Source: an uncultured Poribacteria bacterium (GTDB lineage: Bacteria > Poribacteria > WGA-4E > WGA-3G). From it: 64,000 nucleotides of DNA. A model generated the notes under the pieces. It was not told the DNA's origin and searched no databases. It saw only the letters and a list, made by a program, of their open reading frames with translations. Below, one piece after another: positions 16,075 to 28,409 of the stretch (the stretch's first letter is position 1; each line of letters opens with the position of its first letter). The stretch is taken from assembly GCA_951828385.1 (NCBI GenBank), contig OX639973.1, positions 2,905,200 through 2,969,199 of the forward strand. Reading direction: 5' to 3'. Both the position numbers and the translations under genes were made by a program.

Positions 16075-19000
16075 GTGAATTCGCCCAAACGTCCAAACCA
16101 AGATGCACTCTACCAAGCACTCAATATCTACTGCGATACCATGCGACCGTTTATCCTCAGAAACCTGAAAACGGTGCAAAACCTATCACCAGAAGATCAT
16201 TTTCAAAACGAAGCGGATATAGACTTTCGTGACTTTCCACACCTCTTCAGAAAGTACTGGCACGACGTTTTTAAACATCGCTTTGATCCAGATCGGGATG
16301 TGCGTAGTGCTGTGGGCATAATAACTGAAGCGCGGAATAACACCTTTCACACTGAAACAGAAGACCTCGCTTTAGGATATGCTTTAGCTCGGCTTCACGA
16401 AATTGCCGACATGCTCGGACAAATTAATGCCCCAGAACAGAAAGGTGAAGTTGAAACCACCCGAGACAGGTTATTAGCCAATGTAACATCTACTGTAGAA
16501 TCGAAACCGAAACTACCCCGTAGAAAGGCGGCAGACCTCAAATCATGGCGTGATGTTATACGTCCCAATACCGATGTCATTCAAGGCACTTTCCGAAAAT
16601 CAGAATTCGCCGCGGACCTTCAAGAGGTATTTGAGGGTAGGGCTAAGACACCAGAATACGGCGAAACCGAAATCTTCTTCAATCAGACCTATATCACCCC
16701 CGGACTCCGTCAATTGTTAGTGAACACCTTGAAACGCCTCGGCGGTAAAGATGGCGATCCTGTTATCCAACTCAAAACCGGCTTCGGAGGTGGAAAAACC
16801 CATAGCCTCATCGCTCTCTATCACCTCGTTACTGGGATTAACATCCTAAGAGCACTTCCAGCAGAAAATAAATATAAGCGACTACGTACTGAAATTGAAG
16901 ACATCCTAAACGAAGCAGGATGCCATACCGACACACTCCTCAATGCTAACGTTTCTGTTCTTGTTGGCACCTATCTTTCAACGACCGATGCAGATGAAAC
17001 GCAACAAGGTGACCCGCTCAATACACTTTGGGGTATGATGGCAGATCAACTCGGCGGACAGGATGCTTATAATATTGTCCGGAAAGCCGCACTTGAAGGC
17101 ACCGCTCCGGGTGGAAACCAGTTGGATGCCCTATTTGAACACGTCGGACCCTCTATTATCCTAATGGATGAACTCGTTGCTTATGTCCGGAACGTACAAG
17201 GCGTTACACGAGAAAGCATTTATACCTTTTTTCAAGCGGTTACCGAGTCTGTAAAGAGAACTAAAAATGTTACGCTCGTTACAACGCTGCCAGAGGGACA
17301 AATCCAAGCAGGTGGCGAAGGTGGCATGACTGTTCTTGATACCCTTGAATCCATTCTTGAGAGGGTTGATGCTGTTTCTATCCCCTTGGAAGTTGATAAC
17401 GCATTTGAGGTCGTGCGCAGACGGTTGTTTAGTAATATGAGTGACGACGACAAGACAGAACGCGACTTGACTTGCGAGGCGTTCCGAAGGATGTATCAAA
17501 ACTCGCGCAGTGAATATCCAAATAACGTTAGCGATCAACACTACCTACAACGAATGAAAGACTGCTACCCGATCCATCCCGAAATATTCGACCGACTCTT
17601 TGAGGACTGGGCAGTCATGCCCGGATTTCAACGCACCCGCGGCGTACTACGCATCATGGCGACTTGCATTTCCCGCCTCTACCAAGAACAGGATCCGTCC
17701 CTGTTGATAATGCCCGCAAACCTTACGCTTGACGATCCCGCACTCGCCGATGAATTCACAAGACTGCTTGCAAGGTCTGGCGGAAATTGGGACCCCGTCA
17801 CAAAAGAAGTAGACAGCCACGGTTCCCGGACCGACCAGATTGATCAGAGTTCTCAAAGTTTCATTGAAGTGGGGAGCGCAGCGCGTCGAGTCGCCCGCAC
17901 CGTTTTCTTCGGTAGTGCAACCGGCCGTGCTGTCAAAGGCATATCTCAGCAGCAGATTCATCTCGGAGTCGTTGAACCCGGACAAGGCGTTGCAGTTTAC
18001 AATGATGCACTCAGCAGAATGGCTGGCAACCTCCATTTTCTCTATAATCTTGACGATAGATACTACTTCCATACACAAGAAAATTTGAATAAAGTCGCCA
18101 GAGATCGCGCAGCGGAATACACGGAAAAAGATATCCACGGTGAGATCGTCTCGCGATTGGAAAGAACAATCGGACGCGATCCGAGCGTGCAAATCTGCCC
18201 AACATCTCCAGACCTCGTAAAAGATTCGGAGACCGTCCAGTACGTCATTCTGCCACCACAATCCTCTCTGCCGAGCCGAGAAAAAGAGACCGATGTGGCT
18301 CGCGAGGCAGCACGCAAAATTCTCAGATACAGTACAGACGATGAAAGACAGCGTACCTTCAGAAACACCATCCTTTTCGTTGCAGCGCGGAGAGATGATA
18401 TCCGAGAACTCAGAAACCTTATAAAAAACTACCTCGCGTGGAACTCTATCATGAACGGAGACCTCCTACACGGGGCACTCGCCAACCTTGAAGGTGAAAG
18501 GTTAGACCAGACCAAGGAAAATCTCGAATCTGCCGAAGATGCGGTAACAAACGCCTTGTTCAAGGCATACCGATGGGCACTCACACCCTTCCAAACAGAC
18601 GAGCGGGAGGCCGCATACAACTTCTCTACGGCTGAGACAAGACCCGAAGATGGCAGAATTATGAAGCGTCTCCGAGACAAATTCATTGACGACGACGCAA
18701 TTGTTACAAAAATAGCTCCTGAAATCTTCGCCGGAAAATTGCAGCAATACGTCTGGAGTAGTGACACCTACCAAGACCACATTGAAATAGAACGTCTCTG
18801 GGAACTGATGGCGCAAAACGTCTATATGCCACGACTGAAAGATCGGAACGTTTTGGCAACGTGCATTAAAGACGGAGTCGAAGCAGGCATTTTTGGATAC
18901 GCCAAGGCGTATCAGGATGGCGACTACCACAACTTCCGTTTTGAAGAACAGATCGGTGGACTCCGAATAGATAAAGGCACCCCCGCTGTCCTCATAACCC

Positions 19001-19365
19001 CTGAGTTAGCAAAGTTACTCAAGGAGGAAAGAGACAAGCAGCAGAAACCGCCGGACACTCCCCAACCAGCACCAGGCACGGGAAAGAAAACGAACGGTGG
19101 GACGACCAGTCCTGGGGTCAAACCTTCACAAGCACAGGGACCTACACATATTGTTGTTACCAAGGCTCTGCAATTAGAACTATCGTTTAGCGACGAGCTT
19201 GACATCATCCAAGACGAAATTGCCCGTACCCTGCAAGCCGACGGTGGAAAGGTGAAAGTTGAAATCATCGTCACCGCCGACAAATCAGACAGTTTTTCGG
19301 AAAACACCACCCGCGCAGTGAAGCAAAATAGCGAACACCTCAACGCCGAATTCAAGAGCGACTAA
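16075..19365 (+). CDS. DUF499 P-loop ATPase with N-terminal Swt1/HEPN-like domain
   Basis: This is a large ATPase of the DUF499 family, known to me as a partner of DUF1156 DNA methylases in defence-type islands. Residues 1-130 form an all-helical region resembling Swt1-type HEPN domains (FRKYWHDVFKHRF, ITEARNNTFHTE). Walker A is LKTGFGGGKTHSLIALYHL near residue 240 and Walker B is SIILMDELVAYV near 365. A linker rich in P, K, T and G precedes a small C-terminal domain. GTG at 16075 is the start, behind a strong ribosome-binding site. A likely role is DNA loading, translocation or sensing with the methylase encoded 3 kb downstream; the biochemical activity is not known from sequence. Confidence 0.85.
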   Translation: MNSPKRPNQDALYQALNIYCDTMRPFILRNLKTVQNLSPEDHFQNEADIDFRDFPHLFRKYWHDVFKHRFDPDRDVRSAVGIITEARNNTFHTETEDLALGYALARLHEIADMLGQINAPEQKGEVETTRDRLLANVTSTVESKPKLPRRKAADLKSWRDVIRPNTDVIQGTFRKSEFAADLQEVFEGRAKTPEYGETEIFFNQTYITPGLRQLLVNTLKRLGGKDGDPVIQLKTGFGGGKTHSLIALYHLVTGINILRALPAENKYKRLRTEIEDILNEAGCHTDTLLNANVSVLVGTYLSTTDADETQQGDPLNTLWGMMADQLGGQDAYNIVRKAALEGTAPGGNQLDALFEHVGPSIILMDELVAYVRNVQGVTRESIYTFFQAVTESVKRTKNVTLVTTLPEGQIQAGGEGGMTVLDTLESILERVDAVSIPLEVDNAFEVVRRRLFSNMSDDDKTERDLTCEAFRRMYQNSRSEYPNNVSDQHYLQRMKDCYPIHPEIFDRLFEDWAVMPGFQRTRGVLRIMATCISRLYQEQDPSLLIMPANLTLDDPALADEFTRLLARSGGNWDPVTKEVDSHGSRTDQIDQSSQSFIEVGSAARRVARTVFFGSATGRAVKGISQQQIHLGVVEPGQGVAVYNDALSRMAGNLHFLYNLDDRYYFHTQENLNKVARDRAAEYTEKDIHGEIVSRLERTIGRDPSVQICPTSPDLVKDSETVQYVILPPQSSLPSREKETDVAREAARKILRYSTDDERQRTFRNTILFVAARRDDIRELRNLIKNYLAWNSIMNGDLLHGALANLEGERLDQTKENLESAEDAVTNALFKAYRWALTPFQTDEREAAYNFSTAETRPEDGRIMKRLRDKFIDDDAIVTKIAPEIFAGKLQQYVWSSDTYQDHIEIERLWELMAQNVYMPRLKDRNVLATCIKDGVEAGIFGYAKAYQDGDYHNFRFEEQIGGLRIDKGTPAVLITPELAKLLKEERDKQQKPPDTPQPAPGTGKKTNGGTTSPGVKPSQAQGPTHIVVTKALQLELSFSDELDIIQDEIARTLQADGGKVKVEIIVTADKSDSFSENTTRAVKQNSEHLNAEFKSD

Positions 19366-22474: not shown

Positions 22475-25276
22475 ATGACCAATTACCGAAAAAAACTCAT
22501 TGAGGTGAATATACCCCTCCAAGCCATTAACGTAGAGTCCGCAAAGGACGCATCGCTCACACATGGACACCCTTCAACACTCCATCGCTACTGGGCACGC
22601 CGGCCCCTCGCCGCATGCCGCGCCATTATTTTCGCGAGTATGGTGGACGACCCCTCCGACTGTCAGGACGAATTCCCAACCGAACCCGAACAGAACGCCG
22701 AACGCAACCGACTCTACAATATCATTAAACGACTCGTAATTTGGAAAACTTGCAACGACGAAAACCTATTGGCGGAGGCACGCTATGAAATCGCATATTC
22801 CGCTGCCCGCAACAACGGTGAGAATCTATCTGTTTTCCGTGAAAAATTCAAAAGCGATCCAAAGGCTGTCCTAAAATACCTTCGCGACCACTGTCCCGCT
22901 GTCTATGATCCTTTTTGTGGCGGCGGTTCTATTCCACTTGAAGCACAGCGATTAGGATTACGCGCCCGCGCCTCCGATCTGAATCCGCTGCCCGTCCTAC
23001 TCAACAAAGCGATGATTGAATTACCGCCGAAATTTCATGACCAGAATCCTGTCAATCCGGATGCTGATCCGTTGGGTATGTTCACTGGCACAGGTAGAAG
23101 ACGAATGCGTTTGCCGTGGAAAGGCACCGCAGGTCTGGCAGCCGACATCCGCTACTACGGTGCCTGGATGCGTGAGGAAGCACACAAACGCATCGGTCAC
23201 CTCTATCCGAAAGCACAATTGCCAGACGGCACTTCTGCCACCGTCGTGGCGTGGTTGTGGGCACGCACCGTGCCGTGTATCAATCCCGCCTGTGGCCTCC
23301 AAATGCCTTTGGTGAAGACTTTTCAGTTGTCGAAAAAGAAAGGCAATGAGCATTGGATTAAACCGGTTATTGACCAACAAACAAACACAATTTCGTGGGT
23401 TGTGCAAACACATAATGAAGGAGTCCCGAAGACCGGTACCGTAAACAAAAATGGCACTTTCTGCATCGCTTGCGGCAGTGCAGCCAAATTGCCCTATGTT
23501 CGCGAACAAGCGAAAGCGGGCAAGATGGGAAAAATAATGACAGCAGTGGTCGCAGAGGGAGATCGCAGAAAACTGTTCTTGCCACCAACTGATGAAGATA
23601 TTCAAGTAGCCCAGTCTATCGAATCCACATGGCAACCAACGAGAGAACTGCCAGATCAAGCTCTGGGGTTCAGAGTCCAGAGTTATGGGATTACACAATG
23701 GCATCAACTTTTCAGCGAACGACAGTTAAATGCCCTGAGACTCTTTGGCGATGCTCTAGGTCAAACTCATAGTCAGATGATGCAGGACGGTGCCTCTCCG
23801 GACTACGCCTCTGCTATTTGCACTTATCTGTCTCTTGCTACCGGAAGGTTGGCTGAAAGTGGATGTTCCTTCGCTTGGTGGCAAGATACAGATGAAGTAG
23901 TTAGGACCATTTTTACCCGTCAAGTAATTAACATGAGTTGGAGTTTCGCCGAAACAAATCCATTCTCTACCACAACACAAAACTGGATGGCCCAAGTAGA
24001 GTGGGTTGCAAAGGTGATTGAACACTTGCCTACGTCTGCAAACCCGGGAGAGGCATATCAGGCAGATGCTGTTGCCACATCGCATGCTATCCATGGACCT
24101 ATTATTGTTACCGACCCGCCTTACTATGACAACATCGGCTACGCTGATTTGTCCGACTTCTTCTACGTTTGGCTGAGACCTGTACTACGAGATACTTATC
24201 CAGACCTATTTGGAGGCATGATGACTCCAAAGGACGAAGAAATAACAGCTAGTCCGCGGTTTGAAGATGCTACGCGACACTTTGAAAAATCGCTAAGCAA
24301 AGCACTGCTGCGGCTGCGCCAACACTGCTCTGTCAAGTTTCCTGCCTCCATCTTTTACGCTTATAAACAGCAGGAAGAGGAACAGTATGGAAAAACTTCC
24401 ACCGGATGGGAAACGATGCTTATAGCAATCATCAATGCTGGTTTTCAAGTAGTCAGCACTTGGCCAATGCGAACAGAACAGCCCAAAGCACTCAAGACGA
24501 ATAAAAATGCACTCGCATCTTCTATTGTCCTTGTCTGCCGACCGCGTTCTGAGGAAACTCCTACTATAACCCGTACCGAATTCCTACAAGAACTGAAACA
24601 GGAAATGCCACCCGCACTTGACCGGCTCACGCGCATCGCAAACATCAGACCTGTCGACTTGGCACAAGCCGCTATCGGCCCTGGAATGGAGGTCTACTCC
24701 CGCTATAGCAAAGTCATACGAGTCAGCGGTGAGGTTGTGCCGATACGCGAGGTGCTAATGCATATCAACAACGAAATTACTGCGTACCATGAAAAAGAAA
24801 CAGGCGAATTGGATCCGGAGAGTCAGTTCTGTTTGACATGGTTACAACAGCACGGCTACACAGAGGGTAATTTCGGGGATGCTGAGGGACTTTCAAAAGC
24901 GAAGGATATAGACCTCGCTGCTATGCACGACAAACTCCTGCTTTCGGCACGCGGAAAGGTTCGACTCCTGAAACCAGAAGAATACACCGAGCGCGACAAC
25001 AGCGAGAACATGACGGCATGGGAAGGATGTCTCCGCATGGTGTGGCACCTGTCCGGTGTAGAGAAAAGCGGCGGTATTTCTGGATGTACTACCGTTGCCC
25101 GTGCGATGCGCGATTACGAGTCCGCAAAGCGTTTGGCAGGAATATTGTATACCTACTATGAACGTCGCGGCGATGCAGAAAGCGCATCACGCTACAACAA
25201 CCTCGTAACCCAGTGGCAATATATCTCGCAATCAATGGGTTCCCCAGAACAGATGAAAATGGAAACTGCACTTTAA
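22475..25276 (+). CDS. DUF1156-type DNA adenine methylase
   Basis: This large methylase carries the N-terminal DUF1156 signature (LIEVNIPLQAINVESAKDASLTHGHPSTLHRYWARRPLAACRA). The SAM-binding motif is YDPFCGGGSIPLEAQRLG near residue 147, and the catalytic motif IV is IVTDPPYYDNIGYADLSDFFYVWLRP near residue 545. A zinc-ribbon-like cysteine set lies between (CINPACGLQMP and CIACGSAAKLP). The family methylates adenine or cytosine amino groups and is found beside DUF499 ATPases. At 933 residues it is full length. I infer self-marking for a defence system, with the DUF499 protein as restriction or translocation partner; no nuclease-helicase is found nearby. Confidence 0.87.
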   Translation: MTNYRKKLIEVNIPLQAINVESAKDASLTHGHPSTLHRYWARRPLAACRAIIFASMVDDPSDCQDEFPTEPEQNAERNRLYNIIKRLVIWKTCNDENLLAEARYEIAYSAARNNGENLSVFREKFKSDPKAVLKYLRDHCPAVYDPFCGGGSIPLEAQRLGLRARASDLNPLPVLLNKAMIELPPKFHDQNPVNPDADPLGMFTGTGRRRMRLPWKGTAGLAADIRYYGAWMREEAHKRIGHLYPKAQLPDGTSATVVAWLWARTVPCINPACGLQMPLVKTFQLSKKKGNEHWIKPVIDQQTNTISWVVQTHNEGVPKTGTVNKNGTFCIACGSAAKLPYVREQAKAGKMGKIMTAVVAEGDRRKLFLPPTDEDIQVAQSIESTWQPTRELPDQALGFRVQSYGITQWHQLFSERQLNALRLFGDALGQTHSQMMQDGASPDYASAICTYLSLATGRLAESGCSFAWWQDTDEVVRTIFTRQVINMSWSFAETNPFSTTTQNWMAQVEWVAKVIEHLPTSANPGEAYQADAVATSHAIHGPIIVTDPPYYDNIGYADLSDFFYVWLRPVLRDTYPDLFGGMMTPKDEEITASPRFEDATRHFEKSLSKALLRLRQHCSVKFPASIFYAYKQQEEEQYGKTSTGWETMLIAIINAGFQVVSTWPMRTEQPKALKTNKNALASSIVLVCRPRSEETPTITRTEFLQELKQEMPPALDRLTRIANIRPVDLAQAAIGPGMEVYSRYSKVIRVSGEVVPIREVLMHINNEITAYHEKETGELDPESQFCLTWLQQHGYTEGNFGDAEGLSKAKDIDLAAMHDKLLLSARGKVRLLKPEEYTERDNSENMTAWEGCLRMVWHLSGVEKSGGISGCTTVARAMRDYESAKRLAGILYTYYERRGDAESASRYNNLVTQWQYISQSMGSPEQMKMETAL

Positions 25277-25884: not shown

Positions 25885-25995
25885 ACTCTGCATGTGATAC
25901 TCACAATGCCTAAAGGCGTGTGCTTCTTACCTTCTCTTGGAAGGCTTACTTGATTTGAGTCCCGAAAACGGTGACCACTTATCAAGTCTACATAG
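25885..25995 (-). ncRNA. Putative omega (reRNA) guide-RNA scaffold at the tnpB 3' end
   Basis: TnpB proteins use an RNA made from the 3' end of tnpB through the right element end, with the guide taken from the flank. The strand, the position just after tnpB and the terminal hairpin at 25902-25922 fit. The guide would be read leftward beyond about 25890. The exact 5' end and border are not defined by sequence alone. Confidence 0.35.
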
Positions 25996-27189
25996 GTTCG
26001 GATTATATCGGATACCTACGGGGGATACCACCGCCCCGACTACAGGGTTAAAAAGGAAACCCTGATACTTCGTCAGAATGTTACTCGCACCCACAACGTC
26101 TCTGTGTCCTTGCCACTCACATTCTCCGCAGCGGTAAGTCCTACGACTGGGTTTCTTTCTATGCCCGCAAGACGGACAGGTTTGAGACGTATAGGCTTCG
26201 TCCTCTATATCAATGCTGATACCTACGGCTTTCGCTTTATAGGTTATCATATTCTGAATTTTAGAGAACGCCCACTGGTGTAACTTCTGATTGGCTTTTT
26301 TACCATAGTTGATAGATTGTCTAATATGCTTTATGTCTCCAATGACAATCGTTTCTATCTTTCGCTCTCGGCAAGTAGAAACAAAACGTGACGTTATTTT
26401 ATGGCGCATATCACGCAACTGCGCGGCTAACTTCTGTAGATTTTTGTTTTTGACGCGTTTTAGTTTTTTCCAGCGTCTGCTATATCTAACGCAACGCGAT
26501 AAGGCTTTATTGATACTGGACTTAAATTTGTTTTGATACCTCACAACACTGCGGATTTCGCGTCCATTATAGATGTCGGCATTGATACCGTCAAAAGAAA
26601 CAATTGGGTGTATTTCGCCCATATCCACTGCAACTGCTGAACCTACTTTTGCTTTCGTTTTTTTCGGAGTTGTGTCATAGGTTGCATGAAACTCGTATTG
26701 TTGCGTTGTTCGGTTATAGACAAGCGAGACTTCGGCTGGCACGACCTTATGGAACTTTTTATCAATCTTAATCCAAAGCGGGTCTCGGTCTAATCCCATA
26801 GAAAGCCGTAGTTTGCCACGCTTATAGGAAATACCTGTTGCTCGCCACGTGAATGTGTGGAACTTTGGGGTCTTATTTGGCGGTTTCGCATTCGGATTCG
26901 TTTTTCGGTTCTTAAAGAAAGAACGTCTCGCACCGCAATAGTCGTCTATGACTGCTTGCACAGAATGAGCTTGGCACGGGTACTGCTTGAACTTCAGATA
27001 TGCCTTGAGTCCACCATCTGAAAGCCAAAAACCTTTCTGCTCATGCGTTTTGAACGCAAGCGAAACGGTTTTAGAATAGATACGTCCACCAAGCCGATTT
27101 AGCCCGTCAAGTTGTTCGGTAGGCTTCGCTGTCGCTAAAATATAGGTTCGGTAGGCTTTCTTGGATTTAGACACGCTTTTGATCCTCAA
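25927..27189 (-). CDS. tnpB: TnpB RNA-guided nuclease, RuvC glutamate displaced
   Basis: This 420-residue protein has the TnpB layout: N-terminal helices and an OB-like part, RuvC-I VAVDMGEIHPIVSF, RuvC-II region IETIVIGDIKHIRQS, a zinc finger TCPSCGHRKKPSRRTYRCGECEW, and RuvC-III GHRDVVGASNIL. In ordinary TnpB the RuvC-II motif contains ED; here it is GD. Glutamates occur 45 and 47 residues later (IDIEDEAYTSQ), fitting the described 'rearranged' active site of some TnpB and Fanzor proteins. The protein is therefore probably an active guided nuclease. It overlaps tnpA by 23 bp. Confidence 0.9.
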   Translation of the reverse strand: MRIKSVSKSKKAYRTYILATAKPTEQLDGLNRLGGRIYSKTVSLAFKTHEQKGFWLSDGGLKAYLKFKQYPCQAHSVQAVIDDYCGARRSFFKNRKTNPNAKPPNKTPKFHTFTWRATGISYKRGKLRLSMGLDRDPLWIKIDKKFHKVVPAEVSLVYNRTTQQYEFHATYDTTPKKTKAKVGSAVAVDMGEIHPIVSFDGINADIYNGREIRSVVRYQNKFKSSINKALSRCVRYSRRWKKLKRVKNKNLQKLAAQLRDMRHKITSRFVSTCRERKIETIVIGDIKHIRQSINYGKKANQKLHQWAFSKIQNMITYKAKAVGISIDIEDEAYTSQTCPSCGHRKKPSRRTYRCGECEWQGHRDVVGASNILTKYQGFLFNPVVGAVVSPVGIRYNPNLCRLDKWSPFSGLKSSKPSKRR

Positions 27190-27580
27190 TATATTCTTTG
27201 ACGACTCTTAGGGATACACAGCCCACAGACGATATGAACTTTGAACGCGTCCAAAGGGAAGGTAAGCGGGATTGAAGGTGTGGGAATTCTTCTCTGAGTA
27301 TCCGAGAAGTGTAACCTTTGATTAATCCCACAATCCGAGTAATAGGCACTTTTGGATTGTTCTCAAGTATCAGGTGAACGTGGTCTTCCATAATCTCACT
27401 GGCACGCACTTTGAAATCCAATTCTGTTTGTTTAGAGCAGATTAAATGGTGCAAACGCTCTTGGATAGACTCGTCTAAAACTTTGCGTCTGTATTTGGTA
27501 CACCAGATAACGTGATATTGACAACTATAAACCATGTTAGTATCTGAATACCAATCTTTTTTAGGATTCTTGATAAACAT
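27167..27580 (-). CDS. tnpA: TnpA, HUH Y1 transposase (IS200/IS605)
   Basis: The 137-residue enzyme transposes single-stranded element DNA. The HUH motif is DHVHLIL near residue 68 and the catalytic tyrosine is in VVKEYIEDQK near the C-terminus. The flanking YSCQYHVIWCTKYRRKVL is characteristic of the family. It appears complete, with normal length. The start ATG at 27580 lies next to an AT-rich region (TATAATATAGTATAAC, 27608-27623) that may hold its promoter. Confidence 0.93.
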   Translation of the reverse strand: MFIKNPKKDWYSDTNMVYSCQYHVIWCTKYRRKVLDESIQERLHHLICSKQTELDFKVRASEIMEDHVHLILENNPKVPITRIVGLIKGYTSRILREEFPHLQSRLPSLWTRSKFISSVGCVSLRVVKEYIEDQKRV

Positions 27581-27731
27581 TATACTATATCCTTTATGTT
27601 AGTTTCTATAATATAGTATAACATATTTTTTAGATAAGGTCAAATATATTTGATAAAAAAAGCAGAAGTTAGCAGGGTTGGACCCGAAGCCTAAAGGCTT
27701 GGGATTGTTAGAGAATTCCCTTCAAATCCGT

Positions 27732-27767: not shown

Positions 27768-28409
27768 ATGGCACAAGACTACGACAATATAGGGAAAAGT
27801 CTATGGACAGACCATGCCGCCGACCTTTCGAGATTTGTGCTTGACGAGGAAGACGTTGAAGTCCTTGAAGACCTTGACACCAAACAACAGACCATTATCG
27901 CTCGGCAGACCGACATTACAAAGCACGTCCGCGTCAACAATCAAGAGGCGATCCTACACGTCGAATTGCAACTCCGAGATAGTGCCGCTACACCCATGTG
28001 GGCACGGAACGCGCAATATCAGGGATACCTCGTCGGCAAATACCAAATGCCTGTCTACTCCAACGTTATCTATTTCCATCCGAGAGCCGGAAGGAATGAT
28101 CCCGGGGGTTACACCTACAAATTGCTTGACCGACTCATACCGGAGGAACTTATGTTAGAATCTAAAACTTACCAACGCCAAATGGAAAAAGCTGCCAGAG
28201 AGACAACCCTCAAGAACACCTTAACGGTGCTCAATAGAAAATTTCCGGCAGAAGCAGTGAACGCCTTAACTCCTGAGATGCAAAACATAGATGATTTGCA
28301 GCGATTGGAACAGTTGCTAATCGCAGCAGCTGAAGCGCGAAATCTTGACACCTTCACACAAATGCTGCACGAATCGGAACCCGTGGGAAGACAACAGACA
28401 GCGAACTGA
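27768..28409 (+). CDS. Rpn-like nuclease paralogue with an 85-codon internal deletion
   Basis: It is closely similar to the product of 20852-21715 (MAQDYDNIGKSLWTDHA..., ILHVELQLRDS, YQGYLVGKYQMPVYSNVIYFHPRAG). The sequence jumps from GGYTYK directly to LLDRLIPEELMLESKTYQRQ. The matching 255 bp in the first copy (about 21205-21459) are missing; the join has a 2-bp AA homology and keeps the frame. The nuclease core remains but the middle domain is gone, so activity is doubtful. It extends 11 residues past the other copy at the C-terminus. The IS605 element inserted just upstream. Confidence 0.7.
   Translation: MAQDYDNIGKSLWTDHAADLSRFVLDEEDVEVLEDLDTKQQTIIARQTDITKHVRVNNQEAILHVELQLRDSAATPMWARNAQYQGYLVGKYQMPVYSNVIYFHPRAGRNDPGGYTYKLLDRLIPEELMLESKTYQRQMEKAARETTLKNTLTVLNRKFPAEAVNALTPEMQNIDDLQRLEQLLIAAAEARNLDTFTQMLHESEPVGRQQTAN

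What the first reader, a model, noticed from the sequence alone, without database searches (positions are those of the whole stretch)
25927..27189. TnpB with glutamate missing from RuvC-II but present ~45 residues later
The usual ED of RuvC-II is GD (IETIVIGDIKHI), and candidate replacement glutamates sit at +45 and +47 (IDIEDEAYTSQ), just before the zinc finger. A displaced catalytic glutamate has been described for Fanzor and a subset of TnpB. This protein keeps the RuvC-I and RuvC-III aspartates, so it may be an active member of the group from which Fanzor is thought to descend.
Basis: partly seen in the sequence, partly recalled or inferred. Interest (0 to 1): 0.65.

Follow-up and report, generated by a model that had tools for sequence, protein, structure and literature searches.

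The report
TnpB nuclease with relocated catalytic glutamate
A jumping-gene-encoded, RNA-guided DNA cutter from a Poribacterium has moved one of its three catalytic acids to a new place in the protein; this is a known and widespread variant, and it is not the branch that gave rise to eukaryotic Fanzors, although two other genes in the same genome do carry that branch's signature.

Summary
Window 25927-27189(-) encodes an intact TnpB in an IS200/IS605 element of about 1.8 kb, with an overlapping Y1 TnpA. The canonical RuvC-II glutamate is a glycine (G284, numbered from the TTG start). The only plausible substitute is the second candidate, E331 (+47), exactly seven residues before the first zinc-finger cysteine. 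Across 80 relatives from several phyla, G284, E331 and the two aspartates never vary. The +45 glutamate occurs in only 9 of 80 and is not catalytic. AlphaFold2 places E331 in the loop after the strand before the zinc ribbon, the position reported for Fanzor. Selection on the protein is purifying, and the 3' end folds into a covarying guide-RNA-like scaffold.

This is the known 'Ealt + D-Phi-G' TnpB clade (Yoon et al. 2023), not the DPG/IS607 clade from which Fanzor descends. In my tree they are separate, well-supported clades. The "Fanzor ancestor" reading is therefore only partly right.

Elsewhere in the same genome, two degraded IS607 elements encode TnpBs with both Fanzor marks (DPG + Ealt). 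Their best solved match is mimivirus Fanzor2. Relatives occur in 16 of 35 same-genus genomes, although that signature was described as cyanobacterial only.

The parts
25927..27189 (-). tnpB, 420 codons from a TTG start: D189 (RuvC-I, DMG), G284 (canonical E position), E331 (alternative E), C338/C341/C354/C357 zinc ribbon, D364 (RuvC-III)
27167..27580 (-). tnpA, Y1 (HUH) IS200/IS605 transposase, 137 aa, overlapping the tnpB start; HVH motif and C-terminal tyrosine region (EYIEDQ) present
   Evidence: Pfam Y1_Tnp E 3.8e-38; NF033573 131.6 bits, cutoff 55; sequence
25894..26040 (-). putative omegaRNA (reRNA) scaffold: 3' end of tnpB plus right end; the guide would be the flank directly beyond 25894
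   Evidence: covariation in 16 relatives: 10 of 12 pairs with changes on both sides, 0/500 shuffles; single-strand fold z -2.6
25902..25922 (-). right-end subterminal hairpin (CACACGCC-TTTA-GGC..TGTG)
   Evidence: conserved with compensatory changes
25894..25897 (-). right-end terminus ...TATCAC (TCAC/TCAA in relatives), after which flanks diverge
   Evidence: comparison of right-end flanks in relatives
27683..27703 (-). left-end subterminal hairpin (AAGCC-TTTA-GGCTT)
   Evidence: sequence and relatives
27718..27724 (-). TGAAGGG next to the left end, shared by most close relatives although their flanks differ: candidate target site/TAM
   Evidence: exact TAM border not resolved

Best explanation
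It is the TnpB RNA-guided DNA endonuclease of an IS200/IS605 insertion sequence, of the 'Ealt, D-Phi-G' clade. The RuvC active site is D189-E331-D364. The third carboxylate comes from E331, in the loop between the last RuvC beta-strand and the zinc ribbon, while the old RuvC-II position is fixed as glycine (G284). TnpB is expected to bind an omegaRNA made from the 3' end of its own mRNA plus the right end, with the flanking chromosome as guide, and to cut the empty donor site after TnpA excises the element, so that repair restores the element. Shown here: sequence, conservation, clade, model topology, ends, covarying RNA-like structure, purifying selection. Inferred: metal binding by E331, cleavage, guide processing.
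For: D189, E331 and D364 are invariant in 80/80 and the canonical E is absent in 80/80. The protein fits the published Ealt pattern D{P}Gx(120-160)ExxxxxxCxxCx(12-18)CxxCx(4-8)D, with 139, 6, 12 and 6 residues between (positions; pattern). In the AF2 model (mean pLDDT 83.3) strand 280-285 carries G284, and strand 325-330 is followed directly by E331; in Fanzor/TnpB/Cas12a structures the catalytic E is described on the loop between the fifth beta strand and the TNB domain (PMC11423790), and SpuFz1 E541 binds the metals with D383 and D606 (PMC10432273). The E aligns in one column with the Fanzor2 L79 glutamate. The model matches TnpB (8h1j Z 20.6, rmsd 5.1, 338 aligned) and mimivirus Fanzor2 (9b0l Z 17.8, rmsd 5.1, 365 aligned). 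dN/dS is 0.11-0.17 against five close relatives. Sister elements in the same genome moved recently: L019/L020 97.6% identical over 1879 bp and L024/L026 99.3% over 1484 bp, with different flanks.
Against: No model coordinates were available, so no distance from E331 to D189/D364 was measured. No RNA or cleavage data. This exact element is single-copy in its genome (nearest paralogues about 40% identical). The right-end hairpin may covary because TnpA reads it as single-stranded DNA, so it is not proof of an RNA on its own. Clade-wide conservation would also fit a role for E331 in structure or RNA binding.
Confidence: 0.87

Rival explanations
1. A nuclease-dead TnpB (like TldR or Cas12m-type binders) that lost RuvC-II and now only binds DNA; the later glutamate is incidental.
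For: The canonical RuvC-II glutamate is absent in all 80 relatives; RNA-guided regulators of the TnpB family are known (TldR, PMC13418256, listed).
Against: Both aspartates and E331 are invariant; a dead site should drift. The element keeps its Y1 TnpA and ends, and sister copies with the same site are mobile. E331 sits at the Fanzor catalytic position.
Confidence: 0.07
2. The missing carboxylate is supplied by another residue: E192 of the DMGE motif, or the +45 glutamate E329.
For: E192 is at least 90% conserved in the clade; E329 lies two residues before E331.
Against: E329 is E in only 9/80. E192 is absent in distant members that keep E331: Photobacterium L167 (DMGV) and Haloterrigena L168 (DLGI).
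Confidence: 0.04
3. A pro-Fanzor: a member of the bacterial lineage from which eukaryotic Fanzors descend.
For: Shares the relocated glutamate with Fanzor (PMC10711439).
Against: DMG not DPG (0/80 DPG in its clade); Y1 TnpA, and no IS607 TnpA found beside it; separate clade from DPG/Ealt + Fanzor2; single-sequence phmmer at E<=1 does not list L79 Fanzor2 for it but ranks L79 first for L058 (8e-23).
Confidence: 0.02

Closest known systems
Ealt / D-Phi-G TnpB clade (Yoon et al. 2023, NAR, PMC10711439)
   Same: D-Phi-G RuvC-I, no canonical RuvC-II E, E six residues before the CxxC zinc finger, spacing pattern fits
   Different: Nothing essential. Noted here: the fixed G at the old E position, the near-invariant DxGEIH motif, and a Y1 TnpA next to the gene in roughly 30 of the 80 loci
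Pro-Fanzor / Fanzor2 (DPG + Ealt, IS607)
   Same: Relocated glutamate; same overall fold (9b0l Z 17.8)
   Different: DMG instead of DPG, IS200/IS605 instead of IS607, separate clade
ISDra2-type TnpB (8h1j, 8bf8)
   Same: Fold, RuvC-I and RuvC-III aspartates, IS200/IS605 context, right-end RNA scaffold position
   Different: Canonical glutamate replaced by G; the catalytic E is at the alternative place

Membership tests
Ealt / D-Phi-G TnpB | D-hydrophobic-G at RuvC-I | tested here: met
   VDMGEIHP; I/L/M in 79 of 80 aligned sequences
Ealt / D-Phi-G TnpB | No glutamate at canonical RuvC-II | tested here: met
   G in 80/80
Ealt / D-Phi-G TnpB | ExxxxxxCxxC with published spacing to RuvC-I and to the RuvC-III D | tested here: met
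   E331, C338, C341, C354, C357, D364; 80/80 have the E
Ealt / D-Phi-G TnpB | Groups in one clade apart from Ecan TnpBs | tested here: met
   29 rows, one clade, 99/96, trait columns left out
Ealt / D-Phi-G TnpB | E at the metal site | tested here: inconclusive
   Topology fits; no distances could be measured
Pro-Fanzor / Fanzor | DPG at RuvC-I | tested here: not met
   DMG
Pro-Fanzor / Fanzor | Ealt at RuvC-II | tested here: met
   E331
Pro-Fanzor / Fanzor | IS607 serine TnpA (for pro-Fanzors) | tested here: not met
   Y1 TnpA
Pro-Fanzor / Fanzor | In the DPG/Ealt clade with Fanzor2 | tested here: not met
   (L79 is a long branch)
IS200/IS605 element | Y1 TnpA and subterminal hairpins at both ends | tested here: met
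IS200/IS605 element | Insertion without target duplication | tested here: inconclusive
   No exact empty site could be aligned
OMEGA (TnpB) system | omegaRNA at the right end with flank as guide | tested here: inconclusive
   Covarying structure and fixed end; no RNA data
TldR (RNA-guided repressor, dead TnpB) | Loss of RuvC catalytic residues | tested here: not met
   D, E and D all present and invariant

The most novel reading that the evidence does not exclude
Poribacteria are a second bacterial home of the Fanzor-ancestor lineage. The same genome carries two IS607-type TnpBs (L058, L059) with DPG + Ealt, and relatives with intact IS607 TnpA are spread through the genus. Many lack the CxxC zinc finger and so escape the published search pattern. 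Bacteria that live in animal hosts (sponges; my own knowledge) may then have taken part in the transfer that produced Fanzors.
Probability: 0.12. Interest if true: 0.75.

Novelty: new member of a known kind. Interest (0 to 1): 0.38.

Why it matters
The window gene is one more well-conserved example of a RuvC enzyme that relocated a catalytic acid, in a clade reaching from Poribacteria to an archaeon and with recently mobile copies in one genome. That makes a cleavage test of Ealt outside the Fanzor line straightforward. The larger point lies outside the window: DPG + Ealt IS607 elements in Poribacteria contradict the statement (PMC10711439) that such TnpBs occur exclusively in cyanobacteria.

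Tried and rejected
Empty donor site: one relative (L141) has the two flanking genes joined with about 70 unalignable bases between, so the target site could not be read to the base. Rfam: no credible family over the region. The +45 glutamate as catalytic: rejected by conservation. Glutamates in other paralogues that looked like displaced ones (IDEADRFFASSKTC) are not at the Ealt position; those proteins keep the canonical E as ETLN. Residue-level mapping to Fanzor2 through structure search was not possible because only ranges are given. An IMG/VR scan for DPG relatives found none. Papers on Poribacteria TnpB: none held. Two papers sought by DOI were not held.

Full report
WHAT IS THERE. The ORF at 25927-27189(-) is a TnpB by Pfam and NCBIfam. 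A 137-aa Y1 transposase overlaps its start (27167-27580(-)), with the HVH motif and a C-terminal EYIEDQ tyrosine segment visible in the sequence. The genome is a single 6.66-Mb contig with 54 TnpB hits over the Pfam cut-off. The closest relatives of the window protein are in records named Candidatus Poribacteria, so the host is inferred to be a Poribacterium.

THE CATALYTIC RESIDUES. Numbering is from the TTG at 27189. RuvC-I is VDMGEIHP (D189) and RuvC-III is HRD (D364). Solved Cas12f/TnpB proteins have MEDL at RuvC-II where this family has GDL. Of 54 TnpBs in this genome, seven share G at this place and E at the alternative place. In an alignment of 80 sequences, D189, G284, E331 and D364 are each 80/80, and the +45 residue E329 is E in 9/80.

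STRUCTURE. An AlphaFold2 model from 64 aligned sequences has mean pLDDT 83.3, pTM 0.64. Strand 280-285 holds G284. Strand 325-330 is followed at once by E331, then the zinc ribbon from C338. That is where the catalytic glutamate is described for Fanzor, TnpB and Cas12a: the loop between the fifth strand and the TNB domain (PMC11423790). In SpuFz1 the glutamate E541 binds the two metals with D383 and D606 (PMC10432273). The model matches TnpB, Cas12f and mimivirus Fanzor2 structures over nearly its whole length. Distances could not be measured because coordinates are not released.

THE ELEMENT. Among close relatives, similarity on the right stops at ...GAGTATCAC (window 25894); on the left a hairpin and TGAAGGG are shared by most while the outer flanks differ. 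In relative G018 the two flanking genes lie about 70 bases apart without the element. The 110 bases before the right end have two hairpins with strong covariation: 10 of 12 pairs change on both sides, 94.7% of cells paired against 73% in shuffles, 0/500 shuffles reach any measure, and slid versions fail. The upstream helix lies in the last codons of tnpB, as expected of an omegaRNA scaffold; the right-end hairpin is also the DNA hairpin that TnpA would read. dN/dS against five relatives is 0.11-0.17. Sister elements in the same genome with the same active site moved recently: L019/L020 are 97.6% and L024/L026 99.3% identical inside, with different flanks.

COMPARISON WITH THE KNOWN. Yoon et al. 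2023 (PMC10711439) define Ecan and Ealt, divide Ealt TnpBs into D-Phi-G and DPG clades, and tie Fanzors to DPG + Ealt + IS607. The window protein fits their D{P}G pattern exactly. In a tree of 65 sequences with the trait columns left out, all 29 D-Phi-G/Ealt rows form one clade (99/96), apart from a clade (99/96) of DPG/Ealt proteins with mimivirus Fanzor2 L79. The remaining rows are Ecan TnpBs, set apart by a weaker branch (89/74), so a single Ecan-to-Ealt change is allowed but not proved. L79 and some plasmid rows are long branches and their exact place is unsure.

NOTICED BESIDE IT. L058 and L059 in the same genome read VALDPGVRDF and VCEAYTSKT: the Fanzor fingerprint. L058's best solved relative is mimivirus Fanzor2 (8.1e-23; the next hit is 5.9e-4), with the DPG and the E aligned. 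Each overlaps a fragment of an IS607 TnpA that lacks its N-terminal part. By strong matches, 16 of 35 other same-genus genomes have the family, many beside an intact IS607 TnpA. Cyanobacterial genomes have relatives up to 52% identical over most of the protein. The Poribacterial and some cyanobacterial proteins have no CxxC, so the published pattern would miss them. Two of the genomes (G000, G009) are single contigs, which argues against mis-binned contigs. Direction of transfer is not known.

VERDICT. Real, correctly seen, very probably an active nuclease, and a member of a described clade. The link to Fanzor is by shared active-site arrangement, not by membership.

Noticed in passing
L058:2928-4370(-) (G000:C1:4452327-4453769) and L059:2959-4524(-) (G000:C1:864803 region): TnpBs with DPG at RuvC-I and the alternative glutamate, overlapping truncated IS607 TnpA; no CxxC zinc finger; best solved relative of L058 is mimivirus Fanzor2.
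   Followed up: yes
L173-L185 and L200-L203: DPG/Ealt IS607 elements, many with intact TnpA, in many Poribacteria genomes and related ones in cyanobacteria, lacking the zinc-finger cysteines required by the published search pattern.
   Followed up: partly
L194 (Vibrio phage F100), 1657-2970: A TnpB with DVG (not DPG) at RuvC-I that groups inside the DPG/Ealt clade and lacks the CxxC finger; matches in 20 Vibrio phage records.
   Followed up: partly
window 16075-19362 and 22475-25273: HmaC-like ATPase and HmaB-like methylase (PADLOC Hma defence system) with a DDE transposase gene and two other ORFs between; no HmaA helicase identified among the genes tested.
   Followed up: partly
window TnpB residues E192 and H194 (about 26608-26616): The motif DxGEIH is nearly invariant in this clade (H194 invariant in 64 sequences, E192 at least 90%); its role is unknown.
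   Followed up: partly
window 27768-28406: A protein family without a Pfam hit that flanks the element and occurs several times per genome in the genus.
   Followed up: no
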